Below, piece by piece: positions 14,310-60,078 of a stretch of 64,000 nt of DNA (its first letter is position 1; the number at the start of each line of letters is the position of its first letter). The DNA comes from Eucommia ulmoides (taxonomy: Eukaryota; Streptophyta; Magnoliopsida; Garryales; Eucommiaceae). A program made the translations under genes and the position numbers. Location: the NCBI GenBank assembly GCA_016647705.1, contig CM028338.1:21721577-21785576 (forward strand), written 5' to 3'. The notes beneath the pieces are model-generated. The model made no database searches. It saw only the letters and a program-made list of their open reading frames with translations, and was not told the DNA's origin.

Positions 14310-14499
14310 CTAATTCAGAGGCTCGAGAAATACATCACCATTTATTTCTTGAAGAATCAACGCTCCATCGCTCAAGGCTTTGTGAACAACAAAAAGACCT
14401 TCCCAAGTTGGGGCGAACTTGCCCTTGGCTTCATCTTGAAAATAGAAGATTTTTTTCAATACCAACTCACTAGCGATGAAGACTCTATGGTGGACCTGC
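14310..14499 (-). pseudogene. C-terminal end of Tat integrase
   Basis: Minus strand, open from 14499 to the stop at 14310-14312, about 62 codons. The peptide includes ELVLKKIFYFQDEAKGKF, then APTWEGLFVV, then SDGALILQEINGD, the usual end of Tat-type integrase (K-L-x-P-x-W-E-G-P-Y-V-V followed by GGALxL). The upstream part of the domain is missing: the frame is cut by the P-family LTR that begins at 14500, and the integrase core resumes only at 30303. The gap implies loss of part of the C-terminal half of integrase on insertion or later. Confidence 0.8.
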
Positions 14500-15836: not shown

Positions 15837-17469
15837 AATACCTCTAAACGTAAAATTTTGCTAGTTCTTGAGCAAAACACCCATACAATAAAATAAACTA
15901 CCACAACAATTAATGAACTGAAATACTAAAAACGAAAAACACTGAGGAACTAAAAATAACAACAACGTATGAGTTTTGAATTTCATCTTATACGACTAAC
16001 TATTTTCTCTCATCGGCCCCCAATCATATCGATTTCAAGAGTAAAATGCACTATGTGGTGTTCTAGAATTTTAACATTCAATAATAGTAAACGCCATTGT
16101 AGATCCTGCTCAAGTGTGTGTGCGAAAACTCAATCATACAACCATCCACAGATCGGATTGGATTATCTACCAACAAAGTTCATGACTTAAACCACAAAGG
16201 TATAAGAAATCCATATGCCTGACTGGGTTCCACTCTCCACTAATGTAGGCTTGGAAATTCAAAAAGATCAATAATAATTGGTTTAGTTTTTGTTAAATGG
16301 CCAAGGGTATATTAGGAATATAAAAACAGGTTAACGTTATTAATTTAACGATACCCAAGGCACAACGCTTGACTCAATCACACTCTTAACCCCACATAGA
16401 TCAATTTGAAATAACCCTAAACTTATATTTGAAAACGTAGCACTCACTTGTCTAAACAAACAAAAATAAAACCGTATATACACATGTTTTTTTTTGCCAT
16501 TATGAAACACTCCCCCAAACATATTTGATTTGTACAATCTGACGGGTGTGGAAATACGAAAAATAGAAAGTGAGTACTCGAATACTGAACCAATCAATAG
16601 TTCGCCCAAAACCCAACCGCTCACTTCAAGTAGCATAACAAACACTAACTTGATCTCACTCAAATTGTGCCTTAGGTTTAGCGACAATGGTTTGGAAAAA
16701 CTTTAATTGGCCAGGGTATTTGTTACATGTTCAGAATTGAAATGGCTTACCGGCTTCGACAGGGTAACGAAAGATAAATGATATTACATTGTAGGCTTCA
16801 AAGGCTCAAGTGATTAAAATGAATACTTAAATCATATCTTCTGAACTACCTCGCCTAGAATTTTGCCTAGAATTTCCCACAAATCGGGTTCTAGAATTCC
16901 TATTGTCATGAATTTGGCTAACAGATAATCGGTGTCAAATCAATTGGATAGCTAGTACATTGAGTTTAAATGCTCGTGCAAGTTAGGATCCACGATAACA
17001 TTTACCACAACGAAATGTCAAGCACATAGAATACACATGAATGGGCATTGCGCTCGACCTCAATAAACAATTAAGGGATAGACTCATCATCGGGTAATGG
17101 CCCAGATGAACTACAAAACTCAGCACATAACAACAACAACTAAAAACATAAACACACTAACACTAAACAAACATGCATACAATTTAAACAATAAATTAAC
17201 TTAAACTATATAACTAACAAAAAGAAAACATAATAACATACTACACATCACCCCAAAACTTAAAACGGTTAGTGTCCACAATGACCCAACATCGATCTCA
17301 ACAGTTGAAATAAAATATGACGATGAAGGGAGTTTAGAACAAGTATTTGGGAGGCGAGACAATCTCGCCTACGAGTAAAGTCAGCGGTGACGGTTTAATT
17401 TATTTGAAAACTTGGGTTGCCTCCCAAGAGGTGCTTGGTTTAAGGTCCTCGGCCTAACACGGAGAAGGG

Positions 17470-18480
17470 CTAGTCAAAAAGTGGCTTCTGCCCATAGTAT
17501 ATGTCATACAACACAATATACGGGTCTTGGTTCAGAATGCCCTCAAGCTTGGCGAGATTTGGCAATGATCGGCTCGTATTCTCAACTTGATTTTTCTTCG
17601 AATTTTGTGCTTGGTAGGCATGGATGAACGGAGTTGGAAGTAATGGAGGACAACCAAGCCACATTGGATCCTCATAGAAACATTCGTCTTTGATCGGTGT
17701 CAGAATCACAACGTGGATCTCAAACGGTGGATAATCACAAGTGTTATCTTTTGATTCTTCATCGTTGCTCAATTTTTGGGTCTCCTCATCATTAGGATCT
17801 TCATCAATGATCAAACCCAATGTCCTCCCACTTGCATTTGGTTCCTCACGGTGACTTTCAATGCATGTGGCGTTTGTGTCTCTTAGTGCTACCGTTTCTC
17901 ACTTAGCCTCAATAAAGCAGATAAGCTAACCGATTTGCGTTTGAAAAGACATTACGGTCGTATCAATTTTAGCTCAGGTCGTCTCAATATTGTTAAGACG
18001 ATCCTCGTGCTTGTTGAGATGGTTATGCGTTTACCTCAAGAAAATTTGAGTTTTCCCCATAACTGTAGCAAATATCTCTTCCAGGGTGGGGGAAAACTCA
18101 ACAGGCTAGTCTAGGGTGTCAATCCATGGCACCGAAATGTTGGAATTATCCCTCAAGTTTTGGTAACTTGTTGAATAATTCTAATTCTTAAAATCAAGCT
18201 CCGCCATGTCTTCCAAGAATCGATAGGCTTCGTCTGCGGCTAGTTGGTCAAATGAGATGGTACCATTTCCTCTTTCAACCCACATTCTTGTTGCGACTTG
18301 TAACCCATCTAGGAAGTTTATTAGTTGACATTCCCTCGGGAAACCACGATATGGGAACCGAAATAACAACTCCTTGTATCGATCTTGAGCACAATAAAAT
18401 GGCTCGGAATGTTGTTGAAAGAAATGCAACAATACTCGTTGATGAGACATCTTCAAGTACCCTGCATGAAAAACAAAACT
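17470..18480 (-). pseudogene. Athila-type gag remnant
   Basis: Structural (capsid) protein remnant. The segment 18181-18456 reads as a gag C-terminal part: AQDRYKELLFRFPYRGF, then a QLINFLDGL-like helix, then EAYRFLEDMAELD. This matches the A-W/x-R-F/Y-K-x-L-L...C-P-x-H-G...F-Y-x-G-L...EEAxxLxxxMA pattern of Athila gag. After a stop at 18180 the same product appears to continue with stops and frame changes through LNNIETT and TQIGxL (about 17930-18000), and a Glu/Asp-rich segment follows in a second open stretch, 17820-17470. With the tRNA-Asp primer site this places the family in or near Athila. The gag N-terminus was not found. Confidence 0.6.
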
Positions 18481-18570
18481 AAAAAAAAAAAAAAATTAAA
18501 AATAAAATAAATGCCTAAATTAAAATCAAGTTATTTACTCACAATATCAACAACAATCTAAAAACTAATC

Positions 18571-18587
18571 CCCGACAACGGCGCAAA
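18571..18587 (-). other. Primer binding site, tRNA-Asp type (element A)
   Basis: On the minus strand TTTGCGCCGTTGTCGGG follows the LTR end (CTACCA, AG). It is a mutated form of TGGCGCCGTTGCCGGGGA, the complement of the 3' end of plant tRNA-Asp. Confidence 0.8.
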
Positions 18588-18592
18588 AAACT

Positions 18593-21326
18593 TGGTAGTG
18601 GAATATTATGTCGCTACTTTAACCGCAAGTGTACGGGTCAAGTTTTATAGAATAGGGAATAGTAAGGGTTTTCGTATCCATAGGGATTGGATTAAATTGT
18701 CGCTAAGTACCGCGATTATCATAACCGAACTTTATCTAGGCGATTGAATTTAGGGTTTTTGGTTTTAGATTATATACTAAACAAAATTAACAATGAATTA
18801 AACTATAATACTAAGTATACTATATGGGAATAGATTATCTAGGGATTAACTTCGTTTACTTATACGTGTTTGATTCCATCTAGTTTACATTAACGGTATT
18901 CAAACTATCCGACAATCTAGGTATCGAAAACTCACTCACTACCTCTCCCGAGTATAAAGTGAATGAATATGTGACTTCGAGTCAATGCCAATGTCCCCAT
19001 CTAGTATCTAAACGACACTAATCACATGAGTCTCACCCCAACCTCACTGATTATACACTTTCTAATACTCTCCCGTGTCATTAGATTGTCGCGTTGTGTT
19101 TAAACCCTAGTCCGAATCTGGGGTTACCTCTCCCAAGTGTCAAACCCCGTATTCTCAAATCAACTACAATATCATAACAAACATACTATGGAGGTAAAAG
19201 AACAGTAAATGCAATCGAATACGGATGAACAACCGTTAATGATCGGTGTAATTTACCTATCTATTTCCTAACTGAACTTATTAGTTTTCAAGTACGTTTG
19301 TTACGTTGTATTACGTTTTGATATATTTTTATGTATTTTTGTATACACCAGGTGTGTGGGGGTGAAAAGGCATGAAAATGGATCATAAACGATCAAATCG
19401 GACCAAGAACGGTGGGAAAACAAGTATGAGGGCATAATTTTGAAAACTATACTACCGTCGCGGCATCCAGACCACTGCCACGGCGGTCAATATGCAAAGA
19501 TGACCAAAATGTTACTGACAGACCATCGTTGAGGCGGTGAAAGAACAAGATGGTCTCTGATCCTACCGCTGAGTCCACCGCCAAGGCCGTGGCTTAACCG
19601 ACATACCCACCGCTATGACAGTCAATCTGCACAGCTGTTAGATATTGTTTTAGATATTTTGCTCCCTATTTAAACCATTCTCCTATCTCCTTCTTCAACC
19701 CCCAGCCATAGGAGACCCCTTAGGGTTCCTAATATTTTGAGAGTGTTTTGGGGTGTGCACAACTAATTCCAAAGGAGAAGAACACGTTGCAATAAAGGAG
19801 AAGCGATCGTTGGACGGTTTTAGTGGTAAATCTTTAGACTACGGCTAAGTTCTTCTCTTTCTCTCTTTATTTTCTTAACTTTGGTTGGTTGTTGAGCATG
19901 TTTAGCTCGGTTTTCATTGTATAAATGGTTATGACCATGAGTCAAACTGATTTTGTTTAGGGATTAATATATTTTATGAAATCGTTGTTTGTTTAGATTT
20001 ATGTTTCGTTAATGGTTGTTGTTCGCTATTTCGATTGTGTTTACCGTTATTCTTTGATATCATGGTTGTTTAGATAATTGGAGAATATAGAATTTGACAC
20101 TCGGGAGAGGTAACCCCGAATTCAGATTAGGGGAAACACAACGCGATAATCTAATAACTCGGGAGGGAGTTAAAAAGTGTGCAATCAATGACGTTGGGGC
20201 AAGACTCATGTGACCTAGTGTAGTTAAGACGTTGAGGGGGACTTTTTTGTTGACGCGAAGTTACATATTCACTCGTCTTACACTGGGGAGAAGTGGCGAG
20301 TGAGTTTACAATACAAAGATTGTCAGATACGTCGAATGCCATTATTATAAACTAAACGAGACCAAACACGTTTTTGTAAATGAAGTTAATCCCTAGGAAA
20401 TCTTTTCCCTAAACATCTCAATATCATATTAGTATAGTTAGTTTAATTAACTTAGTATTAGTATTAATTAATTATAAACTTTATTTTTATCACCTAAATA
20501 AAATTAGGCTATGACAATCGCAGTTCTCGATAATAATCTCAACCAATCCCTGTGGATACGAAAACCCCTACTCCTTCCCATCTATCCTAAAACTTGACCC
20601 GTACACTTGCGGTGAAAGTGGCGATGTAATATTCCGCCACCAGTTAACAAAACATTATATACTCAAACAATGTTTTCATAAACTATATCAATCCCTAGAT
20701 AATAGTTATTTAGCTACTCATGATCTTAACCAAATATTCATTAAAATAAGTAATTAACATCATCATTCAATATACAAAACTTAAGAACAAAGAGAGAAAC
20801 AAAGAACACAAAACAAATATGTGAAGTGAAGTGTTCCACTTCCGTAAAAACTGCTCCGAAATCGTTTCCTCTTTCTCAAATTGATGTTCTCCTTTTTTTG
20901 GTTCTTGACCTTGAGCTCCCAAATATCCCAAAAACCTCCCAATTGTGTTCTAAGTGTCTTGGAATCAAAAGGAATAAGGATTGGGCTCATAATATCAAGA
21001 AACATATCTAAAAACCCTTTACAACTAAGGGCTTTGGCACTGCAGCGGTCAAAATCACCGCTGGGATGTCAGTAGGCTCACCGCTGCAGCGATGGTAAAG
21101 CAGTGGGAGTTTTGCCCTTCCATTGCTGCAGTGATGATCATTGATCTTTTTCAACGTTCCTTCACCGTCTTCCTACCGATTTGCTCGTTTTTCAACCATT
21201 TTCGCTCCTAACCCCTACTTTGAACAAAAACAAATAAAAATGAATTAAAACATAATAAAACATAACAAGAACACTCGAGAATTACTAAATACGACTTGGA
21301 AATAGATAGATAAATTTCACCAATCA
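18593..21326 (-). repeat. P-family LTR (element A, upstream), split by a solo LTR
   Basis: Runs 18593-19239 and 20643-21326 around the solo LTR at 19240-20642; net length about 1326 bp, close to the 1337 bp partner at 14500. Minus-strand start is TGATTGGTG (21326), end CTACCA (18593). The palindrome cluster (about 21035-21140) has TGCA cores (CACCGCTGCAGCGATGG). Confidence 0.85.
19240..20642 (+). repeat. P-family solo LTR, TSD GTTAA
   Basis: 1403 bp, TGATCGGTG...CCGCCACCA on the plus strand, flanked by exact GTTAA (19235-19239, 20643-20647). The uninterrupted equivalent is at about 15129-15150. Its U3 cluster (about 19450-19620) uses GC-rich cores (ACCGTCGCGG, CCACGGCGG) instead of CTAG. Confidence 0.92.
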
Positions 21327-22289
21327 AATACCATTAAACTTGGAATTTTGCTAGTCCTCGAGCAAAACGCCTACGCAATAAAATAAACTACTACAACAAT
21401 TAATGAACTGAAATACTAAAAATGAAAAACACTAAGGAACTAAAAATAACAACAACGTATGAGTTTTGAATTTCATCTTATACGACCAAAAATGTTCCCT
21501 CATCGGCCCCCAACCATATTGATTTCAAGAGTAAAACGTACCATGTGGTGTTCTAGAATTTCAACATTCAATAACAGTAAGCGCCATTCTAGATCCTGCT
21601 CAAGTGTGTATGCAAAAACTCAATGATACAACCTTCCACACAAACCGAATTGGATTATCTACCAACAAAGTTCATGACTTAAACCATAAAGGAATAGAAA
21701 ATCCATATGCCTGACTGGGTTCCACTCTCCACTAATGTAGACTTGGAAATTCAAAAAGATTAATAGGACTTGGTCTGGTTTTTGTCAAATGGCCAAGGGT
21801 ATGTTAGGAATATAAAAACAGGTTAACGTTATTAATTTAACGATACCCGAGGTATAACGCTTGGCTCAATCACACTCGTAACCCGACACAGAACAATTTG
21901 AAATAACCCTGAACTTATATTTGAAAATGTAGTACTCACTTGTCTAAACAAACAAAAATAAAACCGTATATACACAAGTTTTTTCTGCCATTATGAAACA
22001 CGCCCCCGAACTTATTTGATTTGTACAATATGATGGGTATGGAAATACGATAGAAAAATGACAAGTGAGTACTCGAATACCGAGCCAATCAATAGTTCGC
22101 CTAAAACCAATCGCTTACTTCAAGTAGCATAACAAACACTAACTTGATTTCACTCAAATTGTGCCTTAAGTTTAGCGACAATAGTTTGGAAAAACTTTAA
22201 TTGGCCATGGTATTTGTTACGTGTTCATAATTGAAATGGCTTACCGATTTCGATAGGGTAACGAAGGATAAATGATATTATATGGTAGG
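21327..22289 (-). other. P-family internal region, partial second unit
   Basis: Non-coding sequence homologous to 15837-16790, continued at 30113-30302 beyond the nested element. Highly conserved with the other copies, without a reading frame. Confidence 0.75.
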
Positions 22290-23858
22290 TGATAGATGTG
22301 ATCTACCTATATATTTCCAAATCGGCTTTGTTTGTTTTAGAGTATTTTTATAGCATTTTTATTATGTTTTAATTAGTTTTTATTCTTTTTGTATAAATCA
22401 GGTGTTTGGGGTGAAAATGTACAAAAATGGAGCGTAAACGATCAGATCAAACCAAGAATGGTTGAAGAACGGTGGAAAAATAAGCACGTAGGCAACAATC
22501 AAAATAGTAGCCCACCGCCTAGGTGTCCAGACCATCGCCTAGGTGGTGAAACTACAGGATGGTCACCAAATCCACCATTGTCTTCACCGTTGCAGCGATC
22601 AACAAATCGACATACCCACTGCCTAGGCGGTGACCTCTGCACCAGATTAGATATTGTTTTGAGATATTTTGCCTATTTAAAACCCTCTCATCTCCTTTTC
22701 TCTTGCACTCTCTGGCCATTAGAGCCCTTAGGGATTAGTTTAGAATAGAGAGAGAAAGTATGAGGAGTGCTCAAACAATTCCGAAGGAGAAGATTACCAC
22801 ACGGAGAAGGAGAAGCGATCGGTGGACGGTTTTAGCGGCTAATCTTCGGACTACGGCTATGTTTATCTGTTTTTCCTTTTATTTCTTAACTTCTATATTT
22901 GTTTTAGCATGTTTAGATTGATTTTAATTGTATAAAAAATTATGACCACGAGTTAAATGTGGATTATGTATGAGATTAATATTATTTATAAAAACCTAGT
23001 TTTGTTTGAGTTGTGTTTCTTTAATGATTGTTCTTCGCTATTTTGATTGTGTTTTTCGTATAGTTTGTTTATTATGCTTAGATAGATATATCGAGAATTC
23101 GGGGTTTGACACTCGGAAGAGATAACCCAGAATTCGAACTAGGGTAAACAACGCGACGATCCAATAACTCGAGAGGGAGTTAGATTGTGGGTAATCAATG
23201 ATGTTGGGGTAAGATTCATGTGACCTAGGGTCGTTAAGACGTTGAGGGAGACTTCTTCATTAACATAAAGTCATGTATTCCCTTGTCTTACACTCGAAAG
23301 AGGTGGCGAAGGAGTTTACGAACTGAGATTGTCGATAGGGTAAACACAACACGACGATCCAATAACGCGGGAAGGAGTTGGATTTTGTGCAATCAATGAC
23401 GTTTGGGTAAGACTCATGTGACCTAGGGTCATTAAGACGTTGAGGGGGACTTCTTCGTTAACACGAAGTCATGTATTCCCTCGTCTTACACTCGGGAGAG
23501 GTGGCGGGAGAGTTTACGAACTGAGATTGTCAAATAGGTTGAACACCGTAACACATAAGTCAAACGAGATCGGACACGTATTTGTAAACCAAGTTAATCC
23601 CTAGACAATTCTTTCCCCTAAAACATTTCATTATATTAGTATAGATAATTTAGTTAATTAGTTTAGTTTAATATAAATTTTATACATTCTTTTTAGACTA
23701 GATAAAGTTCAGTCATGAAATTACGGTACTCGATAATAATGACAACAAATCCCTTTGCATATGATACCCGATCTTAAAAGATTCATCATACTAAAACTTT
23801 GACCTCGTACACTTGCGAGTAGTCAATACGCGAGCGTTTAACAAACCCTCGCCGTACA
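22290..23858 (+). repeat. P-family 5' LTR (element C)
   Basis: 1569 bp. U3 palindrome cluster at about 22510-22640 with CTAG cores; TATA-like CCTATTTAAAACCC near 22671; tandem block of ~196 bp (from about 23141 and 23337) containing AGGTCATTAAGACGTTGAGG-type sequence; ends GCCGTACA. Confidence 0.9.
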
Positions 23859-24012
23859 AGTTTTTGGCGCCGTTGCCAGGGATTGTGTTTGTCGAATTCA
23901 GTTTTCGGCAATCACTACCAAGTTGTTGGCACCGTTGTTGGGGATTGTGTTCGTCGAATTCAGTTTTTGGCAATCGCCACCAAGTTTTTGGCGCCGTTGC
24001 TGGGGATTGTGT
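23859..24012 (+). repeat. Three tandem primer-site units, 62-bp period
   Basis: TGGCGCCGTTGCCAGGG at 23865, TGGCACCGTTGTTGGGGA at 23927 and TGGCGCCGTTGCTGGGGA at 23989, each followed by TTGTGTTTGTCG and (first two) AATTCAGTTTTCGGCAATC-like sequence. The spacing is exactly 62 bp. Only the first is next to the LTR. Confidence 0.9.
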
Positions 24013-24443
24013 TTGTCGTTTATTATTGATATTGTGAGTAAATGACCAGATTTTACTTTAGGCATTTCTTTTGTATATAATTTCTGTTTGTAGTTTTGTT
24101 TTTATTTATTATGTAGGGTAGTTGGAGATGTTAGATCGCTAGGTATTGATGCATTCCTTTTAACGGGATTCTGAGCCGTTTATAGTGTTGGTGCCATGCA
24201 CATAAGCCGATGAGGCGTGTCGTTGAAAGATCGAGCCATCCAGTGCAATATCTTACCTCCCAAGGTTAAAATAAATTAAATCCATTACAACCGACTTGAT
24301 TTGGAGGCGAGATTCTCTTGCCTCCCAGGTACGTCTTCTAAACACCCTTCATCAGCATGCTTTAATTTATATGTTGAGAATGACGATTGGGTTGCTATGG
24401 ACACTGTCCGTTTTAAGTTTGGCGGTGATGTGTAGTATGTTAG

Positions 24444-26132
24444 TGATAGGTGTAAATTACCCCTATATTTCCAAACCGAATTTATTAGTTTTTGAGTACA
24501 TTTATAGTTATTTTTATATGTTTTAATAAGTTTTTATTCTTTTTGTATTAAAACAAGTGCGTGGGGGTGAAAAGGTATGAAATTGGAGCATAAACGATCA
24601 ATTTGTATCGAGAACGGTCGGAGAACGGTGGAAAAATGAGCAAGGAGGCAAGATTCTGAAAGAAGCCCTTTGCCTAGGCGTCTAGACCTCCACCTAGGTG
24701 GAGAAGATGCAGAGAAAACACATTTTGTTACTGACGGACCACTGCCTAGGAGAAATATTTCTCCGCCTAGTCGGCAAAGAGGCAGAATGTTGGAAGCAGT
24801 CCCTCCGCCTAGGCGGAAATCCAGCAGAATGTGTTCCTCGTCCACTACTGACTCTATCGCCTAGGTGAAAACCTTAACTGACATACCTCCGCCTAGGTGG
24901 AAATTCCATTGCCTAGGCGGAGACCTCTGCATAGTGGGAGATATTTTTGAGATATTTTTTGGCCTATTTATACCCTTCTCTCATCATCTCTTCTGACTTC
25001 TTCAGCCCTTAAGGCCTTTGGACATATTTTAGGGTTAGGATAAGGGATTTTTGATGGAGATCTCTCAACCCGAGGTGGAGGATGAAGAGGGAAGCGATCG
25101 GTGGACGGTTCTAGCGGCCATTCTTTGAGTATTGGCTAAGTTGCTCATTTCTTCTCTTTCTTTTCTACATTTTGGTAGTTTTTGAGCATGTTTATGCCAT
25201 TTTACATTGTATACGTACTTATTTCCATTAGATAAACATAGGTTGTATAGGGATTATTAATATAATTTATGAAAACGTTGTTTAGTTGAGTTTATGTTTT
25301 GTTTGCGATTGTTCTTCATTATGTTGATTGTGTGTGCCGTATTATTTGTTTATATTTCTTAGATTTACATTTCGAGAATACGGGGTTTAACAAATCCCAG
25401 ATTCAGACTAGAATAAACAAATGCCACAATCCTATAACCCGGTCAGGGTTTGGATTGTGGACAATCGATGACGTTGGGGCAAGACTCATGTGACCTAGAG
25501 TCATTAAGACGTTGTGGGGGATTTTTGCGTTGACACAAAGTCATGTATTCCCTCGTCTTACACTCGGGAGAGGTGACGGGGGAGTTTTAGAACGGAGATT
25601 ATCGATGGGTAAACACAACGCACGATCCAATAACCCGGGAGAGAGTTGGATTGTGTGCAATCAATGATGTTGGGGTGAGACTTATGTGACCTAGGGTCGT
25701 TAAGATATTGAGGGGGACTTCTTCGTTGATTCGAAGTCACGTATTCCCCCGTCTTACTACACTTGGGAGAGGTAGCAAAAGAGTTTACGAACCGAGATTT
25801 TCATTTAAGTCGAACGCCGTTAACATAAACTAAAACGAGACTGAACACGTATTCGTAAACGAAACTAATCCTTAGACAACCTATTCTCTCAAAACTATCT
25901 GATATTAATATTAGTATTAGTATAGATTAAATTAGGCTATATTAGTATTAGTATTAGTTAATTAAATTACATTTTTGGTTGCTTATATAAAGTCGAGTTA
26001 TGATAATCGCGGTACTCGATAGTAATCTCAACCAATCCCTGTGGATACGGTACCCGACCGAAAGGTCTACTATACTAAAACTTGATCCGTACGCTTGTGG
26101 TGAAAGTGGTTGCACTTAATTAGCGGCCACCA
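24444..26132 (+). repeat. Left arm of palindrome 1: full P-family LTR
   Basis: 1689 bp. U3 cluster 24670-24915 with CTAG cores, including a perfect CCGCCTAGGCGG at 24805-24816. TATA-like GGCCTATTTATACCC near 24961; duplicated ~196-bp block (about 25409-25800). Confidence 0.85.
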
Positions 26133-27166
26133 AATTTTAGTATAGAAGACCTTTCGGTCGGGTATCGTATCTACAGTGATTGATTGAGATTACTATCGAG
26201 TACCGTGATTATCATAACTCGACTTTATCTAGGCGACCAAAAATGTAATGTAATTAACTAATACTAATACTAATATAGCCTAATTTAATCTATACTAATA
26301 CTAATATTAATATGAGATAGTTTTGAGAGAATAGTTTGTCTAGGGATTAGTTTCATTTACGAATACATGTTCAGTCTCGTCTTAGTTTATGTTAACGGCG
26401 TTCGACTTATATGACAATCTCGGTTCGTAAACTCCTTCGCCACCTCTCCAGAGTGTAAGACGGGGGAATACGCGACTTCGAATCAATGAAGAAGTCTCCC
26501 TCAATGTCTTAATGACCCTAGGATGCATGAGTCTCTCCCCAACGTCATTGATTGCACACAATCCAACTCCCTCCCAGGTTATTGGATTGTGCGTTGTGTT
26601 TACCTTATCGATAATCTCCGTTCTAAAACTCTTCCGTCACTTTTCTCGAGTGTAAGACGAGTGAATACGTGACTTTGCTTCAACGCTGAAGTCCCCCTCA
26701 ATGTCTTAATGACTCTAGGTCATGTGACTCTTTCCCCAACGTCATCGATTGTCCACAATCCAAACGCTGGGTTAGGCTTGATTTTGTACTTTTACCGCCT
26801 AGGCGGTGGCACACTTTCTTGTTTTGGCTGTAACTTCTTCATCCATACTCCAATTGAGGTGATTCAAAAACTAATGGAAATATAAGAGAAAGATATACAA
26901 CTTACAAGTTTTGAGTTTTTCCAAAATAAGATTTTATCGTAGTAAAAAATAGCCTTGAAGTTACAGTACCTGTATCGGCTTTGCACATTTCCACCATTTT
27001 TCCACCGTTCTTGATTCGATTTGATCGTTTTTGATCTGTTTACATACTTTTTCACCTCAAACACCTGATTTAGACAAACACATATAAAAACATATTAAAA
27101 CGTACTAAACATACTCGAAAACTAACAACGTTCGGATTGGAAATAGATAGGTAATTTACACCTATC
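26133..27166 (-). repeat. Right arm of palindrome 1: partial P-family LTR, reversed
   Basis: On the minus strand it starts TGATAGGTGTAAATTACC and runs through a U3 unlike that of the left arm, with one perfect CCGCCTAGGCGG (26795-26806) and ACTTGTAAGTTGTATATC-type sequence. It then jumps (about 26760) into the shared block and stops in AAGGTCTTCTATACTAAAATT at 26133. Confidence 0.85.
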
Positions 27167-28490
27167 AGTTAGTATGGGTTACGATTTTACTATATTGCAT
27201 GTTTGTTTAGTGTAGAATGTTTTGATGTTGTTGTTGTGTGCATGCTGAGTTTTGGATTCATCTGGGCTGTTACCTGATGATGATATTATCCCTGGTTGTC
27301 TTCAAAGTCAAGGGTAATACCCGTGCATGTGTGTTCTGTGTGCTTGGCAATGCATTTTGGGTGAAAATTATTGTAGATCCTAATTTGCACGAGCACATAG
27401 ACTCAATGTATTTTTATTCAATTGATTTGAGGCCGATTATTGATTAGCCAAACTCACGACAAATTAAGGATTCTAGAACCTGATTGAGGGAAAACTTGAG
27501 GCGAAATCCTAGGCGAGGTAGTTTAGGAGACGTGATTTAGGCATTCTTTTTGTCGCTTGAGCCTTTTAAGCCTACCATGTTATATGTTTATCCCTCGTTA
27601 CCCTGTCGAATCCTAAATGCCAATTCAATTTTGAATACATGAACAAATACCCTGGCAAATTGATCTTTTTCCAAACTCATATCACTGAATTAAAGGCACA
27701 TTTGAGTGAATCAAGTTAGCATTCGCAAATGCTTCTTGATGTGAGCGGTTGGGTTTTGGGTAAGCTATTAATTTGTTCGGTATTTGAGTATTCACTTGTC
27801 GTTCATATTTCACACACCTCTTAAATTGTACAAATCAAATAAGTTTGGGGGGGTGTTTGTTGGAAAAAAATGTAAATATCGTTAAATTTTCGTTTCTTTT
27901 GACAAGTTAGTACGTTGGTCTTAAATGCAAGTTTAGACTTGTTTCTAATTTATCTATGGGGTTTCGAGAGTGAATGTGCCAAGCGTTGAGCCTTGGGTAA
28001 CGTTAAGTTAACAACGTTAACCTGTTTTCTCTTCCAAAATATCCTTGGCCAAATATTCCAAAACTGAACCAAGTCCTTCTGATATTTATGAACTTCCAAG
28101 CCTACATTAGTGGAGAGTGGACCCCAATCAGGCATATGGATATCCTAGTCCTTTATGGTCTAAGTCATGAGTTTAGTTGGTGGATAATCCATTCCGGTCT
28201 TGGATAGTTATATTATTGAGTCTTGCACAAACACGTTGACAGGATCTAGAATGGCATTCACTATTATTGAATGTCGAAATTCTAGAACACCACATGGTGC
28301 ATTTTACCGCTAGAACTCGATATGACTGGTGGTTGTTTAGGGAAAATGACTTGGTCGTTAGAAGGATTCAAAACTCGCATATCGTTATGTTTAGATTGTT
28401 TTTAGGTTGTTTGTCATTTAATTTAGTTATGTTTTTTTTTTCGTTTGTGTTTTGCTCGAGTACTAGCAAAATTCCAAGTTTGGGGGTATT

Positions 28491-30112
28491 TGATTGGTGT
28501 GATCTACCTATAAATTTACAAATTGGTTTTGTTTGTTTTAGAGTATTTTTTACAGAGTTTTTATTATGTTTTAATTAGTTTTTTTTTTCTTTTTGTATAA
28601 ATCAAGTGTTTGGGGTGAAAACGTATGAAAATGGAGTGTAAACAATCAGATCGAACCAAGAACAGTCGAAGAACGGTGGAAAAACAATCACGAAGGTAAT
28701 AATAAAACAGCAGCCCACCGCCTAGGCATCTAGACCACCGCCTAGGCGGTGAAAATGTAGAGAGGGCCTAAATATGCTGGAAGCTCACTGCCTAGGCGGT
28801 GAAACTACAGGATGGTCACCAAATCCACCACTGTCTTCACCGCTGCGGCGATTAACGAACCGACATACCCACCGCCTAGGCGGTGACATCTGTACCAGAT
28901 TAGATATTTTTTTTGAGATATTTTGCCTATTTAAACCCCTCTCCTCTCATTTCCTCTTGCTCTCTCTAGCAATTAGAGTCCTTAGGGATTAGTTTAGAAT
29001 AGAGAGAGAGAGTATGGGGAGTGCTCAAACAATTCCGAAGGAGAAGATTAACACGCGGAGAAAGAGAAGCGATCGGTGGACGGTTTTAGCGGCTAATCTT
29101 AGGACTACGGTTAAGTTCATCCATTTTTCCTTTTATTTCTTAACTTATATATTTGTTTGGGCATGTTTAGATCAATTTTAATTGTATAAATGGTTTTGAC
29201 CATGAGATAAACGTGGATTATATATGGGATTAATTTTATTTATAAAAACGTAGTTTTGTTTGAGTTGTGTTTCTTTAATGATTGTTCTTCGCTATTTTGA
29301 TTGTGTTTGCCATATAGTTTGTTTATTATGAATAGATAGATATATCAATAATTCGGGGTTTGACACTCGGAAGAGGTAACCCTGGATTCGGACTAAAGTA
29401 AACAACGCGACGATCCAATAACTTGAGAGGGAGTTGGATTGTGGGCAATTGATGACGTTGGGGAAAGACTCACGTGAGCTAGGGTCATTAAGACGTTAAG
29501 GAGGACTTCTTCGTTGACACGAAGTTAAGTATTCCCTCGTCTTACACTCGGGAGAGGTGGCGAGGGAGTTTACCAACTGAGATTGTCGATAGGGTAAACA
29601 CAACGTGACGATCCAATAACGCGGGAGAGAGTTGGATTGTGTGCAATCAATGACGTTGGGGCGAGACTCACGTGACCTAGGGTTATTAAAATGTTGAGAG
29701 GGACTTTTTCATTGACACAAAGTCATGTATTCCCTCGTCTTACACTCGGGAGAGGTGGCAGGAGAGTTTACGAACTGAGATTGTCAAATAAGTTGAACAC
29801 TGTAAACGTAAGTCAAACGAGATCGAACATGTATTTGTAAACCAAGTTAATCCCTAGACAATTCTTACCCCTAAAACATCTCATTATATTAGTATAGATA
29901 ATTTAGTTAATTAGTTTAGTTTAATATAAATTTTATACATTCTTTTTAGCCTAGATGAAGTTAGGTCATGACAATTACGGTACTCGATAATAACGATAAC
30001 CAATCTCTGTGGATACGATACCCGATCTTAAAAGATCCATCATACTAAAACTTTGACCTCGTACACTTGTGAGTAGTTAATACGTGAGCGTGCAACAAAC
30101 GCTCGTTGTACA
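28491..30112 (+). repeat. P-family 3' LTR (element C)
   Basis: 1622 bp, preceded by the purine-rich AAGTTTGGGGGTATT (28476-28490). Perfect CCGCCTAGGCGG at 28738-28749 and 28872-28883, with near copies at about 28717 and 28788. Ends GTTGTACA before GTAGG. Confidence 0.9.
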
Positions 30113-30302
30113 GTAGGCTTCAAAGGCTCAAGTGATCAAAATGAATAACCAAATCATATCTCCTGTACTATCTCGCCTAGGATTTTACCTCGAATTTCTC
30201 GGTTCTAGAATTCCTATTGTCATGAACTTGGCTAAAGGATAATCAACATCAAATCAATTGGATAGCTAGTACATGGAGTTTAAGTGCTCGTGCAAGTTAG
30301 GA

Positions 30303-35577: not shown

Positions 35578-36508
35578 TTAATGATAAAATTGATCTTTTG
35601 GTGTAGCGATGAAGGCACTGCCCCCATTGTGGATCCACAACCTCTCCAACAATAGATTGTATGACGCTGGTATGATGAGCACTAGGAAATTCGCATTGAA
35701 CTGAATTGGGACAATTTCAATTGGCAAGTTAATCTCCCCGATGCTATCTCTTCTTGCCCCATCGAATACCCTGATAACCATTTTCGACAGTCGAATCTAT
35801 GAAAAAAACTATCCCCATTTCATTCAGTGTCGACAAAGGACATGTATTTAGAGCTGATCCATTGTGAATCAGTACCCGAGCTATAAACATTTTGTGGCTT
35901 CTGAATGTGATATTCAGGAACCTGTTGTGTCCAGTTCTATGTTCTTTGATCTCGTCATCAGTGAAAGTGGTGGTGCTAGATCCCAGGTCTTTGTCAACTA
36001 GAGTGACAAATTTTACTGGAGGGATCGTGCTTGGCAAGTGGGCTTCAATCAATACTTTCAGAAGTGCATGTCTGTGTACTTTCGAGGACAAGAGTAGTGA
36101 GAGCATCGAGATTTGTGCTACTGCTTTACTGAGTTGCTCAACTATCTTGTATTCTGAATTTTTCGTCGCCTTTAGAAAGTCTTGAGCCTCTTGTTCTTGC
36201 ACGATTTTTTTCAAAACTTTTCTTGGTTCTCTTATAGGATCCCTGATCAAATCCTGCTGCGTGTACACCATCTTAGACCTAGTGATTCTGCTAGTTTCTC
36301 CTATTGAGATTGACAATTCCTCTCATTCTCTAGTTTTAGCAACAATATCATAGTTATATGTGACCTTATTGAGACTTTTCACGAGCTTTTGGATCGGGAA
36401 AGACAGAACCAGAGATTTCACCAACTTTTTGGCTACCTTTTCTGGATGCAATTCTAACTCTCCGTCGAGAACCTTCGGGTGCAAACAAATACCACCGATA
36501 TTGATCAC
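35578..36508 (-). pseudogene. Tat protease region
   Basis: Minus strand. The stretch 36316-35744 holds KIVEQLSKAVAQISMLSLL, FTDDEIKEHRTGHN and the retropepsin site ARVLIHNGSALN. The usual sequence is VLIDNGSxLN, so the catalytic Asp is His here (codon 35864-35866). The next frame (35781-35578) continues with MVIRVFDGARRDSIGEINLP and a LLLERLWIH segment, the rest of the protease fold (flap and LLGRPWI motif). Order and spacing fit Tat elements; the protein is inactive. Confidence 0.8.
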
Positions 36509-45310: not shown

Positions 45311-46731
45311 TGTACGTCGAGGCGTTTGTTACGCGCTCGTGTATTGATTACTCGCAAGTGCACGAGGTCTAGTTTTAATATAGTGGATCGTTTAAGATAT
45401 GATATCGTTCCCACAGAGACGGGTTGAATAATTGAGTATTGCAATTTGCATAGCCTCCTATTATCCAGATGGTTCAAGAAATGATTTTAAAATTAAACTA
45501 ATTAAAACTAAGTTAAACTACAATTAGTGGGTTAATCCTAACTAAGTTGATTACCTAGGGATTGATTTTGTTTACTTAATACATGTTTGAGTTCATTTTA
45601 GTTAACAATAACAGAGTTTATGGTATCCAATAATCTCGGTTCTAAAACTCATTCGCCATCTTTTTCGAGTGTAAGACGGGAGAATAAGTGACTTCGTGTC
45701 AACGCCGAGGTCCTCCTCAACATCTTAACGACTCTAGGCCACGTGATTCTTACCCCAACGTCATCGATTGCACACTAACTAACACCCTCCCGGGTCGTTA
45801 GATCGTAATGATGGGTTTACCTTAGTCCGAATCCAGGGTTACTTCTTCTGAGTGTCAAACCCTAGATTCTCAAATCCAACCCTAATACCTTAACAAGCAT
45901 ATTGAAGTTGTCATAAAATGATAAACACAATCGGATTTAAAAGCAAACAACCGTTAAAGAAATCTATATTAAACCAAACGAGTATTTACACAACTACATC
46001 GTCCCTAGCTAATATTTATCTAATCTAACATGATCTTGGCCATTAGAACTACAAACCAAGAGATATTCATCATCATTTATAATAAAACATGAAATTACAA
46101 AGAGATAAACAAACAGAGAAAGATCAAATCTTAAAGTGGAGTGATCCACTGTCGCCAAAGACCGATCCGCCAATGTTTTCTCTTCTCCGGATGATAAATA
46201 TCCTCTTCAAGAATGACCAAGAATCAAGCTCCTAAAGTTAGAGACGTTCTATGCTCCAATAGGAGAAGTGGGAGAATGGGTATTTATAGGTGCAAGGTTT
46301 TAAAATATCTAAAAATATCTATTTGCTGTGCAGAGGCCATAGCCGTGGCCGTGGGATAAGTTGGTTTGTTCTCATATATTTTACCACGGCGGCCGTGGGC
46401 TTGCGCCGCGATGGTGGAATAATATCCAACTCTCTGATGTTTTACCGTCGCGACCGTGAGATTATCTCCGCGGCCGTGAGACTTTGTTCATTTAAGCACT
46501 TCTTTGCATTCTCACCGCTACGGCCATGGATTCTTGGCTGTGGCGGTGGCTCTTGTAATCTTGAAACCTTATTTCTTCATCGTTTTCCCACTGTTTTCAC
46601 TCGTTTGTCGCTTGTTTGTGTCCCTACACCTGAATTACATAAAAACAAACAAAAAAGAAATTAAATATAATTAAAACACTCGAAAACTACCAAATCCGGT
46701 TTAGAAGTAGATAGATATTTTACACCTGTCA
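45311..46731 (-). repeat. P-family solo LTR, TSD CCATA
   Basis: 1421 bp on the minus strand, TGACAGGTG...GACGTACA, flanked by exact CCATA (45306-45310, 46732-46736) inside the chromovirus RT. The U3 cluster (about 46325-46545) has GGC-type cores such as CCACGGCGGCCGTGG and CCGCGGCCGTG instead of CTAG. Confidence 0.93.
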
Positions 46732-54949: not shown

Positions 54950-56771
54950 TAACCTTCTAAGTGTTGGGATGGAGAACTTAGTACCGAATCCAAACCACGT
55001 CAGCCCGAATTTTGCGGTACCAGTCTACTACGGACCCTAGATGGGCCCTCATCCCTTATCCTATGGAGTGCTAGCATATCCCAGCAAGGGGCATGTCTAT
55101 CAGACCTTACCCGAGGGCCCAGCCCCATCTGTACCGTAGATATTCATTCACCAAGAGAGATTTGTTGCTCTCTCTAACGATTTGAATGCCAATTAATTTG
55201 CCCCGACCATTGAAACTAAAAAGAGGGAAGAAGATGGGCCCTCTCTAGCCTAGGTTATGAAATTAGAAAGAACAATAGAAGAACTGAAATAGGAAAATCC
55301 ATATAGAAAAATAACGTACAAGGAGCTGTTAGCACTACCCTGGGTGGTGTACCCAGAAATCTTCGTAGTTCTAGAGTTCACGAAGTATGATGGTACTGGC
55401 CCCCTAGAGTAGCATGTTAACATATAAAAGGAGAAATTGGGTGTTTATGCTTGGAATGAAGACCTCTGCTTGAAGATGTTCTGGAGATCGTTGAAAGGAC
55501 CAACTTTCAACTAGTATATGACCCTGGACCTATCGTAGATCAAGACCTTCGAGGATCTGGTAGAGGTTTTTTGTGAGTAGTATGTGTACAATAAGAATGC
55601 TATGTCATATTGCAATACCCTCTACCAAATACTAAAGAAGAAAGATGAAAGCTTTTGGAGGTACATTGCCCATTGGAGGAAGGAGGCTGCCAAAGTTGAC
55701 CCTAGGATGAGCGATGAGGCTCAGTTAGAGATATTCAAGTTAATTTAGATGCCGCTGTTCTATCACGATATTTTGAGCATAGCAGTGGCTTCTTTCAGCG
55801 ATGCAATCAAGCAAGCCGAGGTGATGGAAGAATGAATAAGGAGTGGAAAGATTGAATAGGGCTCGCTCGATCTAACGAATAAGTAACTCTACCAAAGAAG
55901 AAAGAGATTGAGGTAGTTGTCGTTATTTACCCCCAGCAAACCCTTCACTAAAATAACCCCTAAGTTTCCTATTCCTGAAACTATCCGAACCAAAACAACT
56001 AGTACTGCAACTATCTTCCACAAAATCGCCAAAACCAATATTATCCCCAGAACCAGCCATATTCCCAAAGTTGTTCCCGCTACTACCAGAACGTGCTTCC
56101 CCTTACCAAAATCACACACTCTAAGATTATTCCCAAGCCTAGCAAACACCCGCTTACCATACCTATCAGCTAAAGTAGAAACCCCCACCTTAAATCCCTA
56201 ACTATACCCTAAAGCCAGGGACCTAATACCACCCAGGCTATCCACATCACACTACTAGGGGGAACTTTCAGAACGATGACAAGGAACCACTAGACCTTTT
56301 GGTATCAATCACCAAGCAATACTGGAGTTGTTTGAAGTAGGGGATACTGACACCCCTTCCATCCTATGAGCCTAAGCCTTGAACTAAAGCGGCTTATTTG
56401 AATGCTTTCTATGAGTACCACTCGGGATCCAGATGACATACGAACGAGCAATGCTATTACTTGAAAAATAAGATTCAGGAGTTTATACAGATAGAAGCCA
56501 TCACATTTCCTAAAAAGCCTAAGACTGGTGTGCTAAGCTGTCAGCTGAATCAGCTACTTGAACATGTCCCCTTAGGAAGTGGCACTAATCTGATTCTTGC
56601 GGAGGAGATCGAGAAATAAATAATTGTAATTGATATCGATGGTATTTGTTTACATCCTGAGGTTCTTGATGCAGGGATCGAATTGTATCTAGAAGAGGTG
56701 GCCAAAAAGGTGGAGAAATCTTTGGTCTTGTCTTGTTCTATTCAAAAATCGGTGGAAAGTCTCAATAAGGT
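54950..56771 (+). pseudogene. Tat gag, plus-strand copy, broken
   Basis: Recognisable in order: LEFTKYDGTGPLE (about 55375), AWNEDLCLKMFWRSLKG (about 55450), FEDLVEVFCE (about 55545), LYQILKKKDESFWRYIAHW (about 55620), ASFSDAIKQAEVMEE (about 55790) and a zinc-binding stretch YEYHSGSR*HTNEQCYYL (about 56410), where Tyr replaces the first Cys. Many in-frame stops (TAG for the usual Trp or Gln codons). Continues to the KSVESLNKV stretch, where palindromic element 2 is inserted at 56772. Confidence 0.8.
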
Positions 56772-57817
56772 TGATAGGTGTGAAACACCTATCTATTTCT
56801 AAACAGGATTTGTTAGTTTTTAAGCATTTTAGTTATATTTAATCGTGTTTTAATGTGTTTTAGTGTAGAACAGGTGAAAGGATGTTAAAGGGCAAGAAAC
56901 AAGTGAAAACGGTGGAGAAACGGTAAACAAAATGTGCAAAATAGGGTTTCGGTGATTGAAGACCACCGCCTAGGTGGAAAAGAGGCAGAATGTTGGAGTG
57001 TTGAAAGGCTGAACCACCGCTTAGGCAAGAAAACGACAGATTGTTATGCCAGTAGCCACCGCCTAAGCGGAAAAACCACCGCTTAGGCGAAGTTACCGAC
57101 AGAAGTTAATCGACTTAAGTCCACCGCCTAAGTGGTGAACCACCGCTTAGGCGGTGATATTTTGTACAAAAATATCTATTTTCAAATATTTTAAGATATT
57201 TCCAAACCTTACCTATTTAACCCTTTTCTCCACCAAACCTTAGAAATGAGATAGACGTGAGATGAGGCTCCGGTTGACATCTTGAGAGCTCTCCTTCCAC
57301 CTTAGTTAGGTTTAGGTAATTTAGGAGGTAGATTAGATTAGTTTAGGAGGTGTTATTGGCCAATCCTTGAAGAGCTAGAAGAGGAAGTTCATCAACGGAG
57401 AAGAAGAAGCTTGGGAGGATTGTTCTTTGGCGAAAGTGGACCACTCCACTTTGAGATTTGGCTTTTCTTCTCTCTTTTCCATCTTTGTACTTAATTTTTA
57501 TTGTCGATGATGATGATCTCCTCTTGATTTAAATGTTGTATTGGTTAAGAACATGTTAGTGTAATTTAGAGATTAGTTAGGGAAAGGTGTAGTTGTGTAA
57601 ATACTCATTTGGTTCAATATACGTTTCTTTAACGGTTGTTGTTTTAAGTATGATTGTGTTTATCGTTTGATGAAGATCTTAATATGCTTGTAATGGTATT
57701 AGGGTTGGATTTGAGAATCTAGGGTTTGACACTCGGGAGAGGTAACCCTGGATTCGGACTATGGTAAACACATCATTATGACCTAACGACCCGGGAGGGC
57801 GTTAGTTAGTGTGCAAT
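56772..57817 (+). repeat. Left arm of palindrome 2 (U3-side part of LTR)
   Basis: 1046 bp, matched by 59718 down to about 58665. Palindrome cluster 56965-57155 with CTAG/CTAA/TTAG cores (CCGCCTAAGCGG, CCGCTTAGGCGG). Stops abruptly in GTGCAAT. Confidence 0.85.
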
Positions 57818-58221
57818 CTCGGGATTGAGAATTAAGAATTCCAAACTTCTTCATCTCTTCTCACTCTGCTTGATCTCAATAACACTATGAAACAAAAATA
57901 AAAATTAAAAACAAAACAAAAATAAATGTCAGGATTAACACCCGACTACTTAGTCACAATATCAACTTAGAATTCACACTAATCCCACGTCAATAACACC
58001 AAAAACTTGGTGCGTTGACAGAACTAGGATACGATACATTTGGTTTTCCTATTTAAAACTTAAGTTCTGAGCCGATACCGCATTTCTTTTGACAATATTC
58101 AAATAAAATTCAAACTAATCCCCGGCAACGGCACCAAAAACTTGGTAGGCGTTGACGGGAACAGAATTTAACAATATTCAAATAAAATTCACATTAATCC
58201 CCGGCAACGGCGCCAAAAACT
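57818..58221 (-). other. P-family leader with repeated primer sites
   Basis: On the minus strand: LTR end at 58222, AGTTTT, then TGGCGCCGTTGCCGGGGA (58215-58198), a perfect tRNA-Asp-type site; a second, TGGTGCCGTTGCCGGGGA (58135-58118), 80 bp further; and a weaker TGGTGTTATTGACG-type copy near 58001. The first two are embedded in the same AACTTGGTAGGCG...TTAATCCC context. Confidence 0.85.
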
Positions 58222-59718
58222 TGGTAGGTGCGATTTTGTGCACGCCTACTTATGCTCGCAAGTATACGAGGTCTAAAGTTTTAATATAGTGGATCTTTGA
58301 AGATCAGATATCATTCCCACAGAGAAAAGTGTGAATAATGGAATTGAATACCGCAATTGATATAGTCTCATGTTATCCTGACGACGGAAGACATGAATTG
58401 AAATTAAACTAAGCTAAACTACAATTAGTGGGTTAATTCTAACTAGGTTGATTAATTAGGGATTGATTTCGTTCACTTAATACACATTTGATTTCGTTTG
58501 GTTAACAATAACGGAGTTTAGGTATCCAACAATCTCGGTTCGTAAACTCCTCCGCCACCTCTTCCGAGTGTGAGACGAGGGAATACGCGACTTCGTGTCA
58601 ACGAAGAGATCTCCCTCAATGTCTTAACGACTCTAGGCCACGTGAGTCTTGACCCAACGTCATCGATTGCACACTAACTAACGCCCTCCCGGGTCGTTAG
58701 GTCGTAACGATGTGTTTACCCTAGTCCGAATCCAGGGTTACCTCTCCCGAGTGTCAAACCCTAGATTCTCAAATCCAACCCTAATACCATTACAAGCATA
58801 TTAATATCATCATCAAATGATAAACACAATTGGACTTAAAACAACAACCGTTAAAGAAACGTATATTAAACCAAACGAGTATTTACACAACTACACCTTT
58901 CCCTAACTAATCTCTAAATTACACTTACATGTTCTTAGTCAATACAACATTTAATCAAGAGGATATCATCATCATCAACAATAAACATGAAATACAAATA
59001 TGGAAACAAGGGAATAAAAGCCAAATCTCAAAGTGGAGTAGTCCACTTTCGCCAAAGAACAGTCCTCCTGAGCTTTCTTTTCTCGCTTGATGAACTTCCT
59101 CTTCTAGCTCTTCAAGGATTGGCCAAGAACACTCTTTACAACTAATCTAATCTAATTCCTAAACTAATCTAATCTAACTAAGGTGGAAGAGAGCTCTCAA
59201 GAACAACCAAGCCCTCTCCCACGTCTAAGGAGTGTCTAAGGTCTCTTTAGGTTTGGTGGAGAATGGGGTTAAAATGAGGGATTTGGAAAATATCTTTAAA
59301 ATATCTAAAAATAGATATTCATGTGCGGAGTGTCACCGCCTAAGTGGTGGTTCACCACTTAGGCAGTGGACTTAAGTCGGTTAAGTTCTGTCGGTAACTT
59401 CGCCTAAGCGGTGGTTTTTCCGCTTAAGCTGTGCATGCTGGCATAACAATCTGTTCTTTTCTCGCCTAGGCGGTGGTTCAGCCTTTCAGCACTCCAACAT
59501 TCTGCCTCTTTTCTGCCTAGGCGGTGATCTTTATTCACCGAAACCCTATTTTGCACATTTACTTCACCGTTTCTCCACCGTTTTCACTTGTTTCTCGCCC
59601 TTTGACGTCCTTTCACCTGTTCTACACTAAAACACACTAAAACACAATTAAATATAACTAAAATGCTTGAAAACTAATAAATCCAGTTTAGAAATAGATA
59701 TATTTTTCACACCTATCA
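58222..59718 (-). repeat. Full P-family LTR of palindrome 2
   Basis: 1497 bp, minus strand, TGATAGGTG...CTACCA. Palindrome cluster about 59335-59525 mirrors the left arm; single copy of the ~196-bp block. TATA-like CTATTTAACC on the left arm has a decayed equivalent here (near 59270). Confidence 0.85.
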
Positions 59719-60078
59719 AAGGTCCCATGGTACTATGCGATTGTCACTAAAACTAGAGAAAAAGAGGAATTGCCAATCTCAATAGGAGACACTAGAAAAA
59801 TTACTCAGTTTGGGAGGGTGTACATGCCACAATATTTGATTAAAGTTCCTATGAGAAAACCAAGAGGAGTTCTAAAAAAGCCGATGTTAGAACAGGAGGC
59901 TCAAGACTTCTTAAAGGCGATGAAAAATTCAAATACAAGATAGTAGGGCAACTCAGCAAAGTGCCAACGCAAATATGGATGCTCTCACTACTTTGCCACA
60001 TAGACAAAGCATTCAATGCACATACTATCAAGAATTTATTGCTTAAGATGACATGTAAGTGGCGGATGCAATTTATCA
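59719..60078 (+). pseudogene. Tat protease-region fragment
   Basis: Continues the Tat frame after the AAGGT duplication: TKTREKEELPISIGDT and EQEAQDFLKAMKNS-like pieces match 36316-36150 of the minus-strand copy (SISIGETSR, EQEAQDFLKATKNS). Ends near 60078. Confidence 0.65.

What the first reader, a model, noticed from the sequence alone, without database searches (positions are those of the whole stretch)
56772..59718. Palindromic retroelement with two U3 ends and an exact 5-bp target duplication (AAGGT)
The left end is the first 1046 bp of a P-family LTR; the right end is a complete LTR plus leader in reverse orientation. Both outer termini read TGATAGGTG inward. AAGGT flanks both ends, and the related Tat copy at about 36355-36385 shows the same site with one AAGGT and no insert. 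It therefore went in as one unit already inverted, not as an LTR later rearranged. Normal elements end with one U3 and one U5 end.
Basis: seen in the sequence. Interest (0 to 1): 0.88.

Follow-up and report, generated by a model that had tools for sequence, protein, structure and literature searches.

The report
Retrotransposon twins joined tail to tail
In what looks like a plant genome, two DNA copies of a jumping element were fused tail to tail, in several cases through the tRNA that starts the copying, and inserted into a chromosome as one piece, leaving a record of what can go wrong while such elements copy themselves.

Summary
Unit #1 (56772-59718) has a U3 tip at both ends, an exact AAGGT duplication and an empty site at 36363-36367. 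The window holds a second such unit, #2 (24444-27167, GTTAG). Elsewhere in the same 947-Mb genome I found ten more head-to-head joints, nine of them through tRNA-based searches. Both outer U3 ends were reached in 7 of these 12 units: 6 have an exact 5-bp duplication, one matches at 4 of 5. Several joints hold a near-whole tRNA-Asp with CCA fused to U5, the primer of reverse transcription; L080 holds pieces of two. Unit #1's arms belong to different LTR subfamilies, so one molecule folding back is excluded; it is a heterodimer joined at a 5-bp microhomology. Best model: two plus strands, each starting at an exact U3 tip, were joined 3' end to 3' end and integrase inserted the U3-U3 dimer. Joining during integration is not excluded. 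Ten literature searches listed no such report; most subscription papers are not held. Whether these palindromes make silencing RNA is untested.

The parts
56767..56771 (+). left target-site duplication AAGGT of unit #1
   Evidence: empty site
56772..57818 (+). unit #1 left arm: U3 tip to LTR position 1047, subfamily alpha
57814..57818 (.). unit #1 joint: 5-bp microhomology CAATC/GATTG shared by the LTR and the native leader
57819..58198 (-). leader of the second element, inverted; includes a second primer-like site at 58120-58136
58199..58215 (-). primer binding site complementary to the 3' end of tRNA-Asp
   Evidence: genome-wide pattern
58222..59718 (-). unit #1 right arm: complete inverted LTR, subfamily beta, U3 tip at 59718
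59719..59723 (+). right target-site duplication AAGGT
36363..36367 (-). empty site AAGGT in the related host repeat
24439..24443 (+). left target-site duplication GTTAG of unit #2
24444..26132 (+). unit #2 left arm: complete LTR, U3 tip to U5 end CCACCA
26131..26138 (.). unit #2 joint: 8-nt microhomology CAAGTTTT/AAAACTTG inferred from native contexts; the window reads CAAATTTT (one difference)
26139..27167 (-). unit #2 right arm: inverted LTR lacking about 45 nt of the U5 end, with a different U3
27168..27172 (+). right target-site duplication GTTAG
17233..17237 (-). empty site of unit #2 in the related host repeat (reads GTTAT, 4 of 5)
22290..30113 (+). ordinary element of the same superfamily (TSD GTAGG) in which unit #2 is nested

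Best explanation
Each unit is a dimer of two reverse transcripts of one LTR-retrotransposon superfamily. Plus-strand DNA starts at the polypurine tract, so its 5' end is an exact U3 tip. Two such plus strands, at different stages of completion and sometimes from different elements packaged together, became joined 3' end to 3' end by a few matching bases and were copied into a duplex with U3 at both ends. In several units one strand had copied nearly the whole primer tRNA, which would block its normal second transfer. Integrase then inserted the two U3 tips in one concerted step, making the 5-bp duplication. Shown: U3 at both ends, the duplications, empty sites for #1 and #2, tRNA with CCA fused to U5, two subfamilies in unit #1, and the joint microhomologies. 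Inferred: that the joined strands were plus strands, that reverse transcriptase made the join, and that it happened before integration.
For: TSD exact in 6 of 7 units with both ends seen, 4 of 5 in the seventh. Empty sites for #1 and #2; the host LTR runs on across the L051 unit. tRNA-Asp(GTC) at the joint of L028, and 17 further loci where it runs into U5; in 17 of these 18 the match reaches nucleotide 75 (CCA), and in 8 of 18 it starts at tRNA nucleotide 1 (L043 and L048 are probably one event). Other hits of the same search match the tRNA body only; the one read, L059, lacks the U5 part. L080 holds U5-tRNA'-tRNA-U5'. Unit #1 arms: alpha at 33 of 35 and beta at 34 of 35 columns (10 of the 35 are one 10-bp insertion). 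Joint microhomology 5 nt (#1), 8 nt (#2, allowing one later change; strict overlap nil), 3 (L053), 2 (L028), the last three judged against primer-site borders of relatives. The partner arm stops at many places: 1047 in #1, about 269 (L057), 516 (L044), 1188 (L052) and 1196 (L051) in the coordinates of different reference LTRs, or at a complete U5. The sense copy of the tRNA needs a DNA primer, which the partner's 3' end would supply (inference).
Against: L044's flanks differ at one base. In L057 the outer left LTR is only 64% like the inner 3' LTR piece, while that piece is 89.7% like the inverted arm, so its left end may belong to another element despite the exact duplication. Of the 17 tRNA-U5 loci beyond L028, 7 have a direct rather than inverted neighbour (L047 complex) and 2 are unassigned, so tRNA read-through does not always give a dimer. 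L028, L050, L052, L058 and L080 could not be tested for TSD. L054 has about 175 nt and L058 about 85 nt of mostly unassigned filler at the joint. Nine of the ten units outside the window were found through tRNA searches, so the sample is biased to tRNA joints; #1 and #2 have no tRNA copy. Two of 35 diagnostic columns do not support the left arm as alpha and one does not support the right as beta; none lies in the inner 450 bp.
Confidence: 0.7

Rival explanations
1. Hybrid intasome: two separate linear reverse transcripts each gave one U3 end to a single concerted integration, and host end joining then sealed their free U5-side ends.
For: Gives the same TSD, two U3 ends, two subfamilies and short microhomologies. 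Filler at the L054 and L058 joints looks like end joining.
Against: tRNA from nucleotide 1 or 5 up to CCA is kept at the joint in several inverted loci, and the tRNA must be copied into a second DNA strand, which is simplest if the partner strand primed it during reverse transcription.
Confidence: 0.22
2. Snap-back: a single plus strand folded back on itself and copied its own LTR.
For: Unit #2's joint fits 8 nt of complementarity at the U5 end. Arms of L053, L044 and L051 are 92.7-97.6% alike in the parts compared.
Against: Unit #1's arms are two subfamilies. Unit #2's U3 tips are 79.5% alike, no closer than to some other copies. L080 holds pieces of two tRNAs. A hairpin has only one open end.
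Confidence: 0.04
3. Two independent insertions into the same 5-bp site, followed by deletion of the middle.
For: The superfamily nests in itself in this window and at L051.
Against: Needs repeated exact hits on the same 5-bp site; the tRNA at joints has no place in it. Exact TSD in 6 of 7.
Confidence: 0.01
4. A transposon with long terminal inverted repeats, or a DIRS-like inverted-LTR element, replicating as a unit.
For: Long inverted arms and TSDs.
Against: The same LTRs occur as solo LTRs and in elements with direct LTRs among the 20 loci. Of 40 scored matches to unit #1's joint only the unit itself spans it. Joint positions differ among the units read. DIRS-1 uses a tyrosine recombinase (PMC5633606, passages).
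Confidence: 0.01
5. Assembly or sequencing fold-back artefact.
For: Fold-back reads are a known artefact (recalled); no reads could be checked.
Against: Arms are 89% rather than 100% identical, flanks are distinct host sequence, TSDs are exact and tRNA lies at joints.
Confidence: 0.02

Closest known systems
Ordinary LTR-retrotransposon insertion
   Same: LTRs with TG...CA ends, 5-bp TSD, PBS complementary to tRNA-Asp, polypurine-like tract before U3
   Different: Two U3 ends instead of U3 and U5; a joint in the middle; tRNA copied in several
Autointegration products of Ty1 and retroviruses (PMC4751563, passages seen)
   Same: Aberrant reverse transcripts with inverted segments
   Different: Those are circles or truncated circles; here linear dimers are integrated with TSDs and joined U5 side to U5 side
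Strong-stop DNA carrying primer tRNA, proposed as origin of some tRNA-derived SINEs (recalled; not found)
   Same: tRNA fused to LTR DNA at the U5 end
   Different: Here it sits inside an integrated LTR dimer rather than giving rise to a SINE
DIRS-1 (PMC5633606, passages seen)
   Same: Inverted LTRs
   Different: Tyrosine recombinase element with circular intermediates; here TSDs point to integrase, and ordinary copies have direct LTRs

Membership tests
LTR retrotransposon (integrase type) | 5-bp target-site duplication | tested here: met
   6 of 7 units exact, 1 at 4 of 5; solo LTRs L009, L010, L013, L026, L027 exact and L012 4 of 5
LTR retrotransposon (integrase type) | PBS complementary to a tRNA and polypurine tract before U3 | tested here: met
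   (in unit #1 the PBS; the polypurine-like tract in ordinary copies and in L054, L057)
LTR retrotransposon (integrase type) | one U3 end and one U5 end | tested here: not met
   both ends U3 in #1 and #2, L053, L044, L054, L057, L051
LTR retrotransposon (integrase type) | gag-pol coding capacity | tested here: inconclusive
   no open frame of 150 aa or more overlaps either unit; in one related element, L025, two frames gave only PF20167 pieces, both below that family's curated cut-off; probably non-autonomous
DIRS-like element | inverted terminal repeats | tested here: met
DIRS-like element | no target-site duplication | tested here: not met
   TSDs present
DIRS-like element | tyrosine recombinase | not tested
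   no search made
Long-TIR or foldback DNA transposon | many copies sharing the same unit and joint | tested here: not met
   1 of 40 scored matches spans unit #1's joint, of 1515 candidates; not tested for #2
Autointegration product | LTR CA terminus joined to an internal target | tested here: not met
   unit #1 joins LTR position 1047 to leader; L056, a direct joint, does have an exact CACCTATCA end against tRNA

The most novel reading that the evidence does not exclude
Tail-to-tail dimers are a regular side branch of this superfamily's reverse transcription, fed by read-through of the primer tRNA. Each integrated dimer is a promoter-flanked palindrome whose transcript is a long hairpin, so a failed replication product would become a source of small RNAs that silence the whole family in trans.
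Probability: 0.2. Interest if true: 0.85.

Novelty: new variant of a known kind. Interest (0 to 1): 0.73.

Why it matters
If the model is right, these insertions are fossils of reverse-transcription intermediates that are normally lost. They would show that integrase can insert two U3 ends in a living cell, that transcripts of different elements meet in one particle, and that the primer tRNA can be copied end to end and inherited. [quoted passage not shown] They also give a route by which genomes gain long palindromes that could trigger silencing.

Tried and rejected
Snap-back of one molecule was my first model for both units. It was dropped for #1 after the tree and diagnostic sites, and is unlikely for #2 because its U3 tips are no closer to each other than to some other copies.

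A first comparison gave L051's arms as 57% alike. That was wrong because the right-hand LTR used belonged to a later element nested in the unit (own TSD GTGAT). The true right arm is 92.7% like the left over 399 sites. L028, taken first as a simple unit, is a full element plus tRNA plus inverted LTR whose left U3 was lost beside a nested element.

The pattern GCCCCTACCAN{0,30}TGGTAGGGGC gave 0 exact matches and 0 in its control, so direct U5-U5 joints with these intact 10-mers were not found; U5 ends vary, so this is weak. The pattern ACTTGGTAGN{0,60}CTACCAAGT and the unit #2 joint search did not complete, so uniqueness of #2's joint is untested. The right end of L052 lies behind a nested insertion; of L058 one end was not found and the other leads into a longer element that I did not follow; the left end of L050 and of L080 was not found in the pieces fetched.

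Full report
WHAT WAS CHECKED. The window lies in a 947-Mb genome of 391 contigs (C14:21721577-21785576), unnamed; that it is a plant is inferred from its repeats (PF20167 'putative plant transposon protein' pieces in a related element, both below the curated cut-off). Unit #1 has TGATAGGTG at 56772, CACCTATCA ending at 59718, and AAGGT on both sides. Its arms are 88.9% identical over 1066 columns. The host repeat exists elsewhere in the window in inverted orientation with one AAGGT and no insert at 36363-36367.

A SECOND UNIT. At 24444-27167 the same tips face inward with GTTAG on both sides. Its host copy at 17233-17237 reads GTTAT without insert. The left arm is a complete LTR ending CCACCA; the right arm is an inverted LTR missing about 45 nt of its U5 end. 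The inner 642 sites are 90.3% alike, while the U3 tips are 79.5% alike, about as to other copies. The joint fits an 8-nt match, CAAGTTTT with AAAACTTG, if one later substitution is allowed; as the window reads, the strict overlap is nil. Ordinary insertions in the same window, read: an element 22290-30113 with GTAGG on both sides, a solo LTR 19240-20642 with GTTAA, and a solo LTR about 45312-46731 with CCATA.

UNIT #1 IS A HETERODIMER. Among 26 LTR sequences the right arm falls in a group with L010, L011, L013, L017 and L021 (local support 1.000 for the group, 0.996 without L011, 0.384 and 0.991 at inner nodes); the left arm falls outside it. At 35 columns separating 8 alpha from 5 beta copies, the left arm is alpha at 33, beta at 1, other at 1; the right arm is beta at 34 and alpha at 1. 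Ten of the 35 columns are one 10-bp insertion, so the independent changes are fewer. All lie at LTR positions 157-586, so the inner 450 bp are uninformative. Native leaders read ...AATCCCGAGATTG-AGCTTATTGC where unit #1 switches to LTR sequence, giving a 5-bp microhomology. Of 40 scored matches to the joint, only the unit itself spans it (1515 candidates).

HOW OFTEN, WITHOUT tRNA BIAS. A search with 429 bp of the left arm listed 42 matches (2958 candidates, 40 scored). In the 20 loci that I took from it, one, L028, holds a head-to-head pair of this LTR close together; each locus covers only about 9.5 kb, so longer units could be missed.

THE PRIMER tRNA AT JOINTS. L028 holds two head-to-head LTRs with a tRNA-Asp(GTC) between them. 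A search with this joint listed 50 matches (251 candidates, 40 scored). Besides L028 I fetched all 18 whose match ended at query position 76 or later: 17 (L042-L058) have tRNA running into U5, and 1 (L059) has tRNA without U5. L043 and L048 are neighbours with the same joint and probably one event. With L028, 18 loci: the match reaches tRNA nucleotide 75 (CCA) in 17, and starts at nucleotide 1 in 8, at 5 in 6, and at 6, 7, 8 and 12 in one each. What abuts the tRNA 5' end in the 17: inverted in 8 (L044, L050, L051, L052, L053, L054, L057, L058), direct in 7 (L042, L043, L046, L047, L048, L049, L056; L047 complex), unassigned in 2 (L045, L055). L080 was picked's list because two tRNA-U5 fusions there face away from each other 95 bp apart; it reads U5-tRNA'(75 to 12)-tRNA(24 to 75)-U5'.

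OUTER ENDS. I looked for the U3 tips of the 8 inverted loci (16 stretches; 3 more; 1 more), of L028 and of L080. Results: L053 TACGT/TACGT; L054 TCGGT/TCGGT and L057 ACTAC/ACTAC; L051 GGCTC/GGCTC; L044 CTCGC/CTGGC. With #1 and #2: 6 of 7 exact, 1 at 4 of 5; cross-pairing the same flanks gives 0 to 3 matches in all 42. Not testable: L028, L050, L052, L058, L080. In L054 and L057 one side is a longer element rather than a lone LTR: its inner LTR is preceded by a polypurine-like tract and the far U3 tip is about 3.6 and 4.3 kb further out. In L054 the three LTRs are 86-87% alike; in L057 the far LTR is only 64% like the inner LTR piece, which is 89.7% like the inverted arm, so L057 is the weakest of the seven.

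FREQUENCY. A primer-site-to-U5 pattern occurs 10,333 times with up to 2 mismatches (control 0); elements with repeated primer sites count more than once. The same pattern extended 9 nt further into the tRNA occurs 115 times with up to 3 mismatches (control 0); of the 100 listed, 74 have at most 2. So roughly 1% of primer sites show sequence like tRNA read-through; some of the 3-mismatch cases are probably chance. How many are dimers is known only for those read.

MECHANISM. Plus strands start at the polypurine tract (Ty3 review PMC5371799, passages), so their 5' ends are exact U3 tips, and plus strong-stop synthesis normally ends within the copied part of the tRNA primer (established for retroviruses and LTR elements; recalled). 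A strand that copies the whole tRNA has a 3' end that cannot pair at the primer site. Joining its 3' end to the 3' end of another plus strand and copying across gives a duplex with exact U3 tips at both ends and explains why the partner arm may stop anywhere in the LTR. Integrase then acts on two U3 tips. That the join precedes integration is inferred. A model in which two molecules each give one U3 end and host repair seals the rest fits nearly as well.

CONSEQUENCE NOT TESTED. The core of unit #2 (25640-26570) folds as RNA into a near-perfect hairpin (-698.6 kcal/mol against a mean of -217.0, sd 7.4, in 20 shuffles). Whether it is transcribed or makes small RNAs is unknown.

LITERATURE. In ten searches no listed title or abstract start described U3-U3 or tRNA-centred LTR dimers; lists were capped (for example 20 of 221, 15 of 22, 10 of 13). 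I saw passages of four papers (PMC5371799, PMC7472051, PMC4751563, PMC5633606). The library lacks most subscription journals, so prior reports cannot be excluded.

Noticed in passing
24444-27167: A second U3-U3 unit with TSD GTTAG, not named in the finding, nested in an ordinary element 22290-30113.
   Followed up: yes
58088-58228 and 23859-24018: The leader carries tandem repeats of the LTR-end plus primer-site sequence (two or three primer-like sites per element).
   Followed up: no
14499-22289: LTR and internal segments of one subfamily alternate in tandem, suggesting unequal recombination, with a solo LTR (19240-20642, TSD GTTAA) inside.
   Followed up: partly
L046, L049, L042, L056: tRNA fused to the leader, to sequence near the polypurine tract, to internal sequence, or to an exact U3 terminus in direct orientation: other outcomes of tRNA read-through, such as misplaced second transfer or circle-like joints.
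   Followed up: partly
L054 (C14:14664950-14665550): About 175 nt of mostly unassigned filler lies between the U5 end and the tRNA at the joint.
   Followed up: no
4524-5719: Fragments of a copia-type polyprotein (the frame 4524-5150 matches SH3_retrovirus and weakly the integrase core).
   Followed up: no
C5:35807800-35808900 (L048, L043): Two tRNA-LTR joints with the same flank about 0.5 kb apart, probably a local tandem duplication.
   Followed up: no
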